A stretch of DNA of 64,000 nucleotides from Shimia isoporae (lineage in GTDB: Bacteria; Pseudomonadota; Alphaproteobacteria; Rhodobacterales; Rhodobacteraceae), in NCBI RefSeq assembly GCF_004346865.1, contig NZ_SMGR01000001.1, positions 1,426,001 to 1,490,000 of the forward strand, read 5' to 3'. The first letter of the stretch is position 1. Each line of letters begins with the position of its first letter. Shown in pieces: positions 27,423 through 30,934 of this stretch. The notes under the pieces were generated by a model. The model did not search any database, was not told where the DNA came from, and worked only from the letters and a program-made list of their open reading frames with translations. Made by a program: the position numbers and the translations under genes.

Positions 27423-29243
27423 ATGATTTCTGCAGCTTTTCAGGATGTTAAAGAGAGCTTTGCAACCGGATGGAGGCTTCGCTGGCCGTTTGTGGCGGCA
27501 AATATCGTCTTTAACATTCTTCTTGCCGCAGTGTTTGCGCCGATGATGGCGCTGACCGTCCGGGCAGCTTTGGCATTTTCCGGACGACCGGCATTGGCTG
27601 ATTTTGATATTGCCTTCTTCCTTTTGTCACCTGCAGGCGCGATTGGCGGTGTCCTTCTCGTTGCCATGGCTCTGGTTCTTGGCGTGATGAACATTGCCTT
27701 TATGATGGCCACCGCGCGTCACGAGCACCATCACGGGCAAGTCGGTCTATGGGAAGGTGCCTCGCTGGTGCTTCCGCAAATGCCGTCTGTTTTGTCGTTG
27801 GCAGTGCGTCTTACTCTTCACGTGATTTTTCTTAGTTTACCGTTCCTTGCTGTTGCGGGGTTTATTGCCTCGCAATGGTTGAGCGAGTTTGACATAAACT
27901 ACTATCTGACTCACCGGCCGCCGATTTTTCGGCAATCCGTTGTGGTGATAGGGGGCGTGCTCGGACTTTGGGTCGTTCTTCTGGCATGGCGGTTGCTTGG
28001 CTGGACTCTAAGCCTTCCACTGGTGATTTTTGCGGGAACGCAGCCTTCAGATGCTTTGCGGGAGAGCCGTGCCAGAATGCAGGGCCGCCGCATCGGCTTT
28101 CTCTTTAGAATTCTTGTTTGGTTCGGTGTGAGCGCCGCTATTTTCATCGTGGTGATGGGCATTGTGACGTTGGTCGCCGACGTTGCGCTTGTTTTGATTC
28201 CGCAGTCAATGCGTGCACTTGTGGTGGTGCTCGTTCTCATTGGGGCTCTCTATACAGCTGTGAACGTGCTGATCAGCGCCATAACGACCGGTGCGATGTC
28301 GGTTTTGATCGTCGCGGAAGCCGACTGGCCCCGCAATCGTGTACCGCCGCGACAGATACCCAGAAAAGTATTGATTGCAGTATCTCTGAGCGCGGTCCTC
28401 TTTGGCGGTTTCGGTGTTGTCGGGTTGGCAGGACTGGCACCCGTCGATGACGGTCAACCGGTTGAAGTGATTGCTCATCGTGGGGCTGCTGGTGCCAAGC
28501 CGGAGAACACAATGGCCGCGATCAACGAAGCGGTGAGGGTAGGCTCGGACTGGGTGGAGATTGACGTTCAGGAGACGGCTGATGGCATGGTCGCAGTCAT
28601 GCACGACAGTGACTTCATGAAGCAGGCCGGCAATCCGCTGAGAATTTGGGATGCAACGCAGGAAGATCTTGCAAAAATTGACATCGGTAGCTGGTTCGAC
28701 CCTGTCTATGCGGATCAACGGACACCGTTGCTAGCGGACGTTTTGAGAGCGGCCAAAGACCAATCGGGGGTCGTGATAGAACTGAAATACTATGGTCACG
28801 ACGAGATGCTCGAACAACGGGTTATCGATATTGTCGAAGCAGAAGGCATGGTGAACCAAGTTAAAGTTATGTCCTTGAAATATGATGCCGTCGAAAAGAT
28901 GAGGAAACTTCGTCCCGAGTGGGACATCGGGCTTTTGGCCTCTGCTTCGTTGGGCAACATGTGGGATCTGGATGCTGATTTTCTGGCTGTGAACAGTGCA
29001 ACCGCGTCGTATCGGTTGGTGCGGGAAAGCCAGGCAGTTGATAAAAAAGTCTACGTCTGGACAGTCAACGATCCGCTTGCCATGTCCGGCATGATTTCAC
29101 TGGGCGTTGATGGGCTGATCACAGATGAGCCCGAGTTGGCACGCAAAGTCATCGAGGAGCGCCGTGAGTTGTCCGGCCCCGAACGGTTGATACTCGGCCT
29201 GGCGGGACGGGTTGGCTTGGATCTTGAGGCTTGGTTTGAATAG
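27423..29243 (+). CDS. Membrane-anchored glycerophosphodiester phosphodiesterase
   Basis: A 606-residue protein. The first about 340 residues contain several hydrophobic helices matching the glycerophosphoryl diester phosphodiesterase membrane domain. The C-terminal GDPD barrel starts at AHRGAAGAKPENTMAAI (H352 region), with EIDVQETADG and VMHDSDF following as the metal/catalytic segments. It hydrolyses glycerophosphodiesters to glycerol 3-phosphate and an alcohol, so it takes part in lipid turnover at the membrane. Its end overlaps the start of a PLA2-like secreted protein. Confidence 0.92.
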   Translation: MISAAFQDVKESFATGWRLRWPFVAANIVFNILLAAVFAPMMALTVRAALAFSGRPALADFDIAFFLLSPAGAIGGVLLVAMALVLGVMNIAFMMATARHEHHHGQVGLWEGASLVLPQMPSVLSLAVRLTLHVIFLSLPFLAVAGFIASQWLSEFDINYYLTHRPPIFRQSVVVIGGVLGLWVVLLAWRLLGWTLSLPLVIFAGTQPSDALRESRARMQGRRIGFLFRILVWFGVSAAIFIVVMGIVTLVADVALVLIPQSMRALVVVLVLIGALYTAVNVLISAITTGAMSVLIVAEADWPRNRVPPRQIPRKVLIAVSLSAVLFGGFGVVGLAGLAPVDDGQPVEVIAHRGAAGAKPENTMAAINEAVRVGSDWVEIDVQETADGMVAVMHDSDFMKQAGNPLRIWDATQEDLAKIDIGSWFDPVYADQRTPLLADVLRAAKDQSGVVIELKYYGHDEMLEQRVIDIVEAEGMVNQVKVMSLKYDAVEKMRKLRPEWDIGLLASASLGNMWDLDADFLAVNSATASYRLVRESQAVDKKVYVWTVNDPLAMSGMISLGVDGLITDEPELARKVIEERRELSGPERLILGLAGRVGLDLEAWFE

Positions 29244-29778
29244 GGCGGTGCTGGCGGTGGCTTTGAGCTTCGCCACTTTCTCTGAAGCACAAGAAGACCT
29301 GGGGGCGATTGCTCAACTAGAGGTTTGGCGGCATGAGCGGTTTCTTCTCGTCCGCAATGCCGAAGCATCCGATTTGGCGGCTTTTACCACTGACGGGTGT
29401 TCAGGCGGAATGTCGTCGGCATGGCGCACGGTTGCGCAGGTATTTCCTAGTTTTCGACAAAACCAAGGTGAGGTGCCACCGTGGGAAAGATGCTGTGTTA
29501 CCCATGATGAGGCCTATCATCTTGGGGGTGATGGCACATCAGCAAGAACGAGCTATGACGCAAGATTGGCGGCCGATGAAGCCTTGCAGCAATGCGTGAA
29601 AGCCGTGGCCCGGGAGGATGGCGACGCCCTTCAGGCAAGGTACGGCGAGCCACAGGAACGTATTGAAATTGCTTTTGATTTCATAGCGGACCGAATGCTT
29701 GAAGCGGTCCGTGTTGGCGGCGCACCGTGTTCAGGATTACCGTGGCGCTGGGGCTATGGCTGGCCGCATTGCTGGTAG
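29212..29778 (+). CDS. Secreted phospholipase A2-like protein
   Basis: A 188-residue frame with an N-terminal signal peptide (LAVALSFATFSEA, cleavage near residue 26). It carries DGCSGG (C63) followed by ERCCVTHDEAYHLGG with C94, C95, H98, D99 and Y102. CCxxHDxxY is the catalytic signature of phospholipase A2, and the glycine/cysteine loop resembles its calcium loop. There are six cysteines after the signal, enough for three disulfides. I do not recognise the family. The start is uncertain: TTG 29212 or TTG 29224 inside the end of the GDPD gene. The pairing suggests a lipid-degradation role. The end is two bases from the convergent HD gene. Confidence 0.6.
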   Translation: MAWILRLGLNRAVLAVALSFATFSEAQEDLGAIAQLEVWRHERFLLVRNAEASDLAAFTTDGCSGGMSSAWRTVAQVFPSFRQNQGEVPPWERCCVTHDEAYHLGGDGTSARTSYDARLAADEALQQCVKAVAREDGDALQARYGEPQERIEIAFDFIADRMLEAVRVGGAPCSGLPWRWGYGWPHCW

Positions 29779-29779
29779 A

Positions 29780-30934
29780 TCACGTGTTGGCAGCGAACCA
29801 GTCAGCGATCCGCTGCTGTAAATGGTCCCAAATTGCAGGAGCGCCCTTTGCGACCTTCCATCCAACGCGATCCTCGAGCTGTTGGGCAGTTACATTGTAT
29901 TCAGGCCAAGTCCCGCCTTCAGTTTCAAGATTGCCAATGACCGGCTGAACGCGGTCGATGGACTTGGCAAACACCGCATCATTGCTTTCTGCGGCTTCGA
30001 ATTCGTCCCAGAGTGCGCGAAAAGCTTGCGCTTGGTTTTCCGGCAGTAGTCCGAAGATACGATCTGCTGCTGCCGCCTCTGCCGCTTCCATCGCGGAAAT
30101 GTCATGATCGCCGTGGATCGGGCTATCGCCCACGTCGATCTCCACAAGGTCATGGATCAACAGCATTTTTACAATGCGACCAAGGCTGATTTCCCGGTTT
30201 GCGTGCTCAGACAGGGTCAGAGCATAAAGAGCAATGTGCCAACTATGTTCGCCAGAGTTTTCCCGGCGGGTCATGTCGAGAATCCGAGTGGCGCGCAATA
30301 CGGATTTCAGTTTGTCCGCTTCTGAAAGAAACGCCAAGCGACGGCTTAGGGGATCTTCTCGGTCTATTGAGGTTCCGTTTAGCAGCGACTCTGAATGAGA
30401 AAAAATGTCCGGATACGCTTCCTTGATGAATGCGGCCCGTCCATAAGCAAGGTTCTCGCGCGCGATTGCTACGTGGTCAGGTCGGGGTTCGGTCGCCAAA
30501 AGCACCTGAAAAACCGGCTGAACGTAATCCAGCATTTTCGCAAAACCGGCATCTGCCGTCTCCGCCGCTTCGAACTCCTGCCAGAGCGCCTTGAGGTTTT
30601 CGCCTTGCTCCGCTGGAAGCAAACCAAAAATGCGATCTGCTGCTTCGGCTTCCGCCGCAGCAACCGATTGCCAATCTGTTTTTAGGTGGATCGGATGGTC
30701 GCCGACATCAATCTCCACGAGATCATGCAGAAGCAACATGCCGATTACGCGGTCGATTGATACGCCCGTCGGGGCGATCGGTTCAAACACCATCGCAAAC
30801 AAAGCCAGGTGCCAGCTGTGCTCGGCAGAGTTCTCAGCGCGCGACAAATCCTGCAGGACGTTGGACCGCTGAATTCCTTTGAGACGGTCAACTTCATTCA
30901 AAAATGCGAGTTGCGCCTCAAGTCTGTTCGTCAT
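29780..30934 (-). CDS. Tandem HD-domain protein (duplicated YfbR/HDDC2-like 5'-nucleotidase)
   Basis: A 384-residue protein made of two homologous HD domains. Repeat 1 (about 1-190) has ENSAEHSWHLA, LLLHDLVEIDVGDHPIH and DYVQPV. Repeat 2 (about 195-384) has ENSGEHSWHIA, LLIHDLVEIDVGDSPIH and DRVQPV. Each keeps the H...HD...D metal ligands, so both look active. Single-domain relatives hydrolyse deoxynucleoside 5'-monophosphates. The fusion would form an intramolecular pseudo-dimer. It overlaps the next gene upstream (78-residue protein) by four bases, so they share an mRNA with the alpha/beta hydrolase. Confidence 0.85.
   Translation of the reverse strand: MTNRLEAQLAFLNEVDRLKGIQRSNVLQDLSRAENSAEHSWHLALFAMVFEPIAPTGVSIDRVIGMLLLHDLVEIDVGDHPIHLKTDWQSVAAAEAEAADRIFGLLPAEQGENLKALWQEFEAAETADAGFAKMLDYVQPVFQVLLATEPRPDHVAIARENLAYGRAAFIKEAYPDIFSHSESLLNGTSIDREDPLSRRLAFLSEADKLKSVLRATRILDMTRRENSGEHSWHIALYALTLSEHANREISLGRIVKMLLIHDLVEIDVGDSPIHGDHDISAMEAAEAAAADRIFGLLPENQAQAFRALWDEFEAAESNDAVFAKSIDRVQPVIGNLETEGGTWPEYNVTAQQLEDRVGWKVAKGAPAIWDHLQQRIADWFAANT

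What the first reader, a model, noticed from the sequence alone, without database searches (positions are those of the whole stretch)
29212..29778. Phospholipase-A2-like secreted protein overlapping a membrane GDPD gene
The sequence shows a signal peptide, a DGCSGG loop and CCVTHDEAY, the core catalytic pattern of PLA2 enzymes (CCxxHD), with six cysteines. The gene begins inside the end of a GDPD gene, whose product cleaves the glycerophosphodiesters that lipases leave. The pair could form an envelope phospholipid recycling unit. I know of no described family with this exact layout.
Basis: partly seen in the sequence, partly recalled or inferred. Interest (0 to 1): 0.6.

Follow-up and report, generated by a model that had tools for sequence, protein, structure and literature searches.

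The report
Secreted phospholipase-A2-like enzyme paired with GDPD
This marine bacterium carries an uncatalogued family of secreted enzyme that keeps every key active-site residue of phospholipase A2 and is usually encoded together with a membrane enzyme that cuts phospholipid head groups, which points to a two-step phospholipid-dismantling unit in the cell envelope.

Summary
The ORF is real. The start is more likely TTG 29236, giving 180 aa and an 8-nt overlap with the GDPD gene. It belongs to an uncatalogued family (no Pfam or NCBIfam hit; 'hypothetical protein' on plasmids) in Alpha- and Gammaproteobacteria, Desulfobulbia and Bdellovibrionota. In 105 aligned members D53, C55, C86, C87, H90, D91, Y94, D114 and C120 are invariant: the PLA2 calcium loop, catalytic His, calcium Asp, second catalytic Asp and disulfide cysteines. 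Profile-profile comparison with group XIV PLA2s gives a pairwise E of about 2e-6 to 6e-6, score 40 against at most 18.5 for 100 shuffles, and aligns H64/D65/D85 correctly. Foldseek on two confident AlphaFold models found no PLA2, so fold identity is not shown. The GDPD link is strong: it lies directly upstream in 56 of 98 testable loci, all in one clade, and across 199 genera of the window's family the two genes co-occur 17 times (3-4 exceptions each way, P about 4e-18). A gammaproteobacterial clade instead fuses the domain to an APP1 phosphatidate phosphatase. Best reading: a periplasmic PLA2-type hydrolase working with a periplasm-facing GDPD (possibly a lysophospholipase D) in envelope phospholipid turnover. 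New variant of a known kind; activity untested.

The parts
27423..29243 (+). Membrane glycerophosphodiester phosphodiesterase gene (606 aa): N-terminal GPDPase_memb region with about 8 hydrophobic segments, then a GDPD catalytic domain after the last segment; partner gene
   Evidence: PF10110 E 1.9e-15, PF03009 E 7.3e-35, PF13653 E 3.3e-9; hydropathy and K/R distribution put the catalytic domain on the periplasmic side (inference)
29226..29229 (+). GAGG, likely ribosome-binding sequence inside the GDPD gene
   Evidence: read from the sequence; 6 nt before TTG 29236
29236..29778 (+).
   Evidence: orthologues L002 and L003; 106 relatives; AlphaFold2 pLDDT 90.8
29236..29289 (+). signal-peptide-like N-terminus MNRAVLAVALSFATFSEA
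   Evidence: by eye; some relatives look lipoprotein- or membrane-anchored instead
29392..29409 (+). DGCSGG calcium-loop motif (D53, C55); D53 aligns with Ca ligand D43 of S. violaceoruber PLA2
   Evidence: D53 and C55 invariant in 105 of 105; profile alignment
29491..29517 (+). CCVTHDEAY motif (C86, C87, H90, D91, Y94); H90 aligns with catalytic H64 and D91 with Ca ligand D65
   Evidence: all five invariant in 105 of 105
29563..29595 (+). RLAADEALQQC: D114 aligns with the second catalytic Asp (D85); C120 lies six residues on
   Evidence: D114 and C120 invariant in 105 of 105
29695..29721 (+). MLEAVRVGG, C-terminal helix that aligns with YYQAVKIFG of group XIV PLA2
   Evidence: profile alignment
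29728..29772 (+). Family hallmark C-terminal tail with PWRWGYGW (29740-29763) between C165 and C179, a probable disulfide; absent from known PLA2s
   Evidence: R171, W172, G175 invariant; C165 and C179 present or absent together, 95 both, 10 neither, 0 mixed

Best explanation
The gene encodes a secreted (periplasmic) calcium-dependent phospholipase of the PLA2 superfamily. D53 with the backbone of G54, and D91, would bind calcium; H90 with D114 would activate water to cleave the sn-2 ester of a glycerophospholipid; three disulfides (inferred C55-C87, C86-C120, C165-C179) hold the small helical domain. It is co-translated with a membrane GDPD whose catalytic domain faces the periplasm and which probably cuts the head group from the lysophospholipid (lysophospholipase D) or from the fully deacylated glycerophosphodiester. 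Together they would form a two-step phospholipid turnover unit in the envelope; in another lineage the same domain is covalently joined to an APP1-type phosphatidate phosphatase. Shown: homology at profile level, invariant active-site residues, conserved gene pairing and fusion. Inferred: catalysis, calcium, location, substrate order, physiological role.
For: All PLA2 catalytic, calcium and core disulfide residues are invariant in 105 members down to about 38% identity. Profile-profile match to 12 group XIV PLA2s over 76-77 columns: probability 85-89, pairwise E 2.3e-6 to 6.1e-6, score 40 against at most 18.5 for 100 column shuffles and 9.5 reversed, with H64/D65/D85 and the last helix in register. 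A group XIV HMM run over 3206 ORFs of the loci puts 53 of the family's 81 ORFs in its top 60. Weak direct hits to three PLA2 Pfam models only: PLA2G12 in 8 of 79 members (best E 0.0028), Phospholip_A2_3 in 2 (0.059), Phospholip_A2_1 in 1 (0.1). Confident models with helices carrying CC..HD..Y and D114/C120. GDPD directly upstream in 56 of 98 testable loci across Alpha- and Gammaproteobacteria and Desulfobulbia, all in one clade. Genome co-occurrence in 199 genera: both 17, PLA2-like only 4, GDPD only 3 (Fisher P 3.8e-18). The pair also sits on roseobacter plasmids. APP1_cat fusion in five proteins, E 1e-43 to 4e-47. Precedents: TtaP is below 20% identical to SvPLA2, keeps the dyad and has PLA2 activity (PMC11525133); the S. 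aureus GDPD LpgD is a lysophospholipase D acting on 1-acyl lysophospholipid, the product type of a PLA2 (PMC10404611).
Against: Foldseek found no PLA2 for the full or the core model in the PDB, nor a significant match in BFVD; no matched control (a known remote PLA2 modelled the same way) could be run. No Pfam, NCBIfam or PDB sequence hit for the window protein itself. The Y-x-N of the published Tox-PLA2 motif is absent. The co-occurrence P value is not corrected for shared ancestry. GDPD is missing next to 41 of 98 members. No activity, calcium or localisation data.
Confidence: 0.7

Rival explanations
1. A PLA2-type enzyme used mainly against other organisms: a secreted toxin or effector aimed at competitor or host membranes, with the neighbouring GDPD a lipid-clearing or protective partner.
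For: Bacterial PLA2 domains with the motif DxC[ST], CxxHxxxYxN are known as toxin tips of polymorphic toxins (PMC3482391), and TtaP is part of a toxin islet (PMC11525133). A phage family of unknown function, phrog_6098, matches the core (E 7e-5 to 7e-9).
Against: No toxin trafficking domain or repeat; single-domain secreted protein; syntenic chromosomal place within Shimia; the partner is a lipid enzyme, not an immunity-like protein; the other lineage is fused to a phosphatidate phosphatase.
Confidence: 0.1
2. A PLA2 relative that has become a non-enzymatic lipid-binding or envelope structural protein, or an enzyme with another ester substrate such as a lipoprotein acyl chain or plasmalogen-type lipid.
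For: The long PWRWGYGW tail and the extra helical insertion are as conserved as the active site; known PLA2s lack them. Foldseek does not place the models with PLA2.
Against: Invariance of the complete His/Asp/Ca set, including D114, is what a working PLA2 site would show; non-enzymatic PLA2 relatives usually lose H48 or D49 (established knowledge, not tested here).
Confidence: 0.15
3. Not a PLA2 homologue: an unrelated cysteine-rich helical protein whose CCxxHD pattern is convergent.
For: No significant hit to any curated PLA2 model for the window protein and no PLA2 among the fold matches.
Against: Four collinear motifs align with group XIV PLA2s, scores far above shuffled controls, 53 of the top 60 in an unbiased ranking; D114-C120 has the same +6 spacing as D99-C105 of pancreatic PLA2 (recalled); independent lipid-enzyme partners.
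Confidence: 0.07

Closest known systems
Group XIV prokaryotic/fungal PLA2 (PF09056; S. violaceoruber 1FAZ/1IT4, Tuber borchii TbSP1 4AUP)
   Same: Secreted small helical protein; D-x-C loop, C-x-x-H-D-x-x-Y, R-x-x-D, and C-terminal Y/M-x-A-V-x-x-G helix in the same order
   Different: CC instead of one Cys before HD, the extra C120, an inserted stretch between loop and HD, a longer second helix, and the C-terminal C165..PWRWGYGW..C179 tail; no PF09056 hit above threshold
Group XII PLA2 (PLA2G12, PF06951) and group I/II sPLA2
   Same: CC-x-x-HD-x-x-Y and Asp-(x5)-Cys spacing; eight members match PF06951 weakly, best E 0.0028
   Different: Lacks the additional disulfides of those groups; far below the gathering score; bacterial, GDPD-linked
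TtaP of Salmonella Typhi (PMC11525133)
   Same: Divergent Gram-negative PLA2 recognised by the His/Asp dyad; activity shown by assay
   Different: H70-D85 spacing 15 against 24 here; TtaP lacks the cysteines and belongs to a toxin islet
Tox-PLA2 domains of polymorphic toxins (PMC3482391)
   Same: DxC[ST] and CxxHxxxY
   Different: No Y-x-N; no toxin architecture; operon with GDPD or fusion to APP1
LpgD, a GDPD-family lysophospholipase D of S. aureus (PMC10404611)
   Same: Membrane-anchored GDPD that turns 1-acyl lysophospholipid into lysophosphatidic acid; a model for the partner gene
   Different: Single N-terminal helix instead of a multi-pass GPDPase_memb region; no PLA2 gene beside it is described in the passages read
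APP1 phosphatidate phosphatase catalytic domain (PF09949)
   Same: Fused C-terminally to this PLA2-like domain in five gammaproteobacterial proteins
   Different: Not present next to the window gene

Membership tests
PLA2 superfamily | Catalytic His followed by Ca-binding Asp (HD) in a helix, preceded by Cys (CxxHD), with Tyr at H+4 | tested here: met
   C87, H90, D91, Y94 invariant in 105 of 105; helix 84-96 in the model
PLA2 superfamily | Calcium-loop Asp/Gly-x-Cys upstream | tested here: met
   D53-G/Q54-C55 in all members, aligned with D43-L44-C45 of SvPLA2
PLA2 superfamily | Second catalytic Asp on the following helix | tested here: met
   D114 invariant, aligned with D85, on helix 103-127
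PLA2 superfamily | PLA2 fold: two antiparallel helices bringing His and Asp together | tested here: inconclusive
   Two long helices predicted with confidence, but Foldseek gives no PLA2 match and model coordinates could not be measured
PLA2 superfamily | Calcium-dependent sn-2 acyl hydrolase activity | not testable with these tools
   needs an enzyme assay
PF09056 Phospholip_A2_3 (group XIV) | Score above Pfam gathering cut-off | tested here: not met
   No hit for the window protein; best member E 0.059
PF06951 PLA2G12 | Score above Pfam gathering cut-off (34 bits) | tested here: not met
   Best member 18.1 bits, E 0.0028; window protein none
PF00068 Phospholip_A2_1 | Score above Pfam gathering cut-off | tested here: not met
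   One member at E 0.1
Tox-PLA2 (polymorphic toxins) | Motif DxC[ST], CxxHxxxYxN and a toxin delivery architecture | tested here: not met
   First two parts present, Y-x-N absent (window: YHLG); signal peptide plus single domain
Membrane GDPD (PF10110 + PF03009), partner gene | Both domains above cut-off | tested here: met
   56.9 and 121.7 bits against cut-offs 29.6 and 23.6

The most novel reading that the evidence does not exclude
A dedicated periplasmic phospholipid-turnover route in diverse Gram-negative bacteria: an uncharacterised sPLA2 family makes 1-acyl lysophospholipid, and a co-translated membrane GDPD acting as lysophospholipase D converts it to lysophosphatidic acid, with a phosphatidate phosphatase fused on in a third lineage. 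This would be a bacterial PLA2 to lyso-PLD to phosphatase pathway with an animal-type (CC..HD..Y / D-x5-C) PLA2 core.
Probability: 0.3. Interest if true: 0.65.

Novelty: new variant of a known kind. Interest (0 to 1): 0.5.

Why it matters
Secreted PLA2s are well studied in animals and in a few actinobacteria and fungi; in Gram-negative bacteria few are characterised and most that are named are toxins. This is an uncatalogued family with an intact PLA2 site that is locked to a lipid head-group enzyme by gene order and, in another lineage, to a phosphatidate phosphatase by fusion. It gives two independent genomic leads to function and a tractable test system (Dinoroseobacter shibae plasmid pDSHI05). 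In S. aureus the enzyme that makes the LpgD substrate is unknown (PMC10404611), so a PLA2-GDPD pair bears on how bacteria make and clear lysophospholipids.

Tried and rejected
Pfam and NCBIfam scans of the window protein: nothing. PDB sequence searches with the single protein and with profiles A1, A2, A3: only noise. Foldseek of two models: helical-bundle noise in the PDB; in BFVD three parvovirus/densovirus structural proteins (viruses known to carry a PLA2 domain in VP1, from own knowledge) are among the top 21, but at E 1.3-2.1, so not counted as evidence. PF06951 search in 299 Pseudomonadota genomes: nothing and no control rang, so uninformative. PF09056 in 200 Pseudomonadota genomes: one hit, not in this family. 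An apparent GDPD-PLA2 fusion in L047 was rejected: the long frame is spurious and only a 43-residue GDPD remnant lies upstream. No phage relatives by tblastn. Literature searches for the PLA2/GDPD or PLA2/APP1 pairing found nothing on this family.

Full report
What is there. The window holds an ORF at 29212-29778 (+) that begins inside the end of a GDPD gene (27423-29243). The upstream protein is a GPDPase_memb + GDPD enzyme. Close relatives L002 and L003 start at the TTG equivalent to 29236, which has a GAGG 6 nt upstream, so I take 29236 as the start: 180 aa, 8-nt overlap. The N-terminus MNRAVLAVALSFATFSEA looks like a signal peptide; this is by eye.

The family. One scan of 84,980 species genomes gave 106 relatives: Shimia and other Rhodobacteraceae, Gammaproteobacteria, Desulfobulbia, and short divergent ones in Methylobacter and Halobacteriovoraceae. 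Search of 299 Pseudomonadota genomes found it in 9, including a short subfamily; in the window's own family 21 of 199 genera have it; the window's genome has one copy. Short and long subfamilies are clearly one family (hhalign E 5e-44). No Pfam or NCBIfam model covers it, and plasmid-borne members are annotated 'hypothetical protein'. In 105 aligned members D53, C55, C86, C87, H90, D91, Y94, D114, C120, V158, G161, G162, R171, W172 and G175 are invariant. C165 and C179 are present or absent together (95 both, 10 neither, none mixed), as expected for a disulfide.

Is it a PLA2? No curated PLA2 model is reached. Single members touch PLA2G12 (8 of 79, best E 0.0028), Phospholip_A2_3 (2) and Phospholip_A2_1 (1), all weakly. 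I therefore built a group XIV profile from four PDB chains (1faz, 4aup, 7ygk, 8k1w), seven actinobacterial plasmid proteins and L100. Profile-profile alignment with the family gives probability 85-89, pairwise E 6.1e-6 to 2.3e-6 and score 40; 100 column-shuffled versions reach at most 18.5 and the reversed one 9.5. The E-value is for one comparison, not a database search. The alignment puts D53 on D43, H90 on H64, D91 on D65, D114 on D85 and MLEAVRVGG on YYQAVKIFG. H64/D85 as the dyad and D43/D65 as calcium ligands of SvPLA2 are from my knowledge of the literature; the conserved His/Asp dyad and adjacent Asp of group XIV are stated in PMC11525133. Independently, the group XIV HMM ranked over 3206 ORFs of the loci puts 53 family ORFs (of 81) in its top 60. 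The spacing D114-C120 and the CC pair match the C29-C45 and C44-C105 disulfides of pancreatic PLA2 (recalled), which SvPLA2 lacks in part.

Structure. AlphaFold2 models are confident (pLDDT 90.8 full length, 87.9 core), with helix 84-96 carrying CC..HD..Y, helix 103-127 carrying D114 and C120, and helix 140-161 before the tail. Foldseek against the PDB and BFVD did not return a PLA2 or any significant match. I report this as a failed confirmation. I could not run a control to see whether Foldseek would recover any remote PLA2, and could not read model coordinates, so the antiparallel packing is not shown.

Neighbours. A membrane GDPD homologous to the window's lies directly upstream in 41 loci of the first set including the window and in 16 of 20 further genera of the window's family. 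Over the whole alignment 57 of 98 testable rows have GDPD sequence upstream, one of them (L047) only a 43-residue remnant. On a tree all of these fall in one clade of 72 rows (SH-aLRT 94) that spans Alpha- and Gammaproteobacteria and Desulfobulbia; 9 changes of the label are needed against 31.6 for shuffles. Across 199 genera the GDPD occurs in 20 and the PLA2-like gene in 21, both in 17; Fisher P 3.8e-18, not corrected for kinship. The pair overlaps by 4-8 nt in many lineages and occurs on plasmids, among them pDSHI05 of Dinoroseobacter shibae. In a separate gammaproteobacterial clade (five proteins, support 93) the PLA2-like domain is fused to an APP1 phosphatidate phosphatase domain (E 1e-43 to 4e-47).

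Mechanism. The GDPD has about eight hydrophobic segments with positively charged loops at 192-239 and 298-315, which places its catalytic domain on the periplasmic side (inference), the same side as the secreted PLA2-like protein. A PLA2 makes 1-acyl lysophospholipid. A GDPD enzyme of S. aureus, LpgD, is a lysophospholipase D that uses exactly 1-acyl and not 2-acyl lysophosphatidylglycerol (PMC10404611). The simplest chain is therefore phospholipid, lysophospholipid, lysophosphatidic acid; APP1 in the other lineage would fit a next phosphatase step. Only homology, residue conservation and genome context are shown; catalysis, location and order are inferred.

Verdict. Works like a PLA2 with good support; filed in the PLA2 superfamily as probable, but not as a member of PF09056, PF06951 or PF00068, whose cut-offs it fails. 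The family and its GDPD operon appear undescribed in the sources searched.

Noticed in passing
window 29780-30934 (-): A 384-aa HD protein made of two tandem HD_3/YfbR-like domains (two stretches, E 7.5e-98); most Shimia relatives have a single 193-aa copy at the same place, L006 also has the double form.
   Followed up: partly
L046, L054, L062, L065, L071: Fusion of the PLA2-like domain to an APP1 phosphatidate phosphatase catalytic domain in one gammaproteobacterial clade.
   Followed up: yes
L047:1090-1218: A 43-residue remnant of the membrane GDPD upstream of an intact PLA2-like gene: the partner decayed while the PLA2-like gene stayed.
   Followed up: yes
L142 (pDSHI05 of Dinoroseobacter shibae DFL 12): The GDPD/PLA2-like pair (DSHI_RS21120/DSHI_RS21115, 4-nt overlap) sits on a plasmid; a usable laboratory strain.
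   Followed up: partly
phrog_6098 (phage family, 78 positions): A phage protein family of unknown function matches the CC..HD..Y and AD..C core of this family (E 7e-5 window, 2.8e-9 L080, 7e-9 L079); possibly a phage PLA2-like protein.
   Followed up: no
L084-L091, L079, L080, L144: A short subfamily (about 100-150 aa, DGCSxFPDG...CCxxHDxAYWxGG...RWGYGW, without C165/C179) in Gammaproteobacteria and Bdellovibrionota, without GDPD; also uncatalogued.
   Followed up: partly
L023, L027, L028, L039, L063, L064, L068: In another gammaproteobacterial clade the PLA2-like gene follows a 210-220 aa gene that by eye resembles methionine sulfoxide reductase A, in a conserved run with no GDPD.
   Followed up: no
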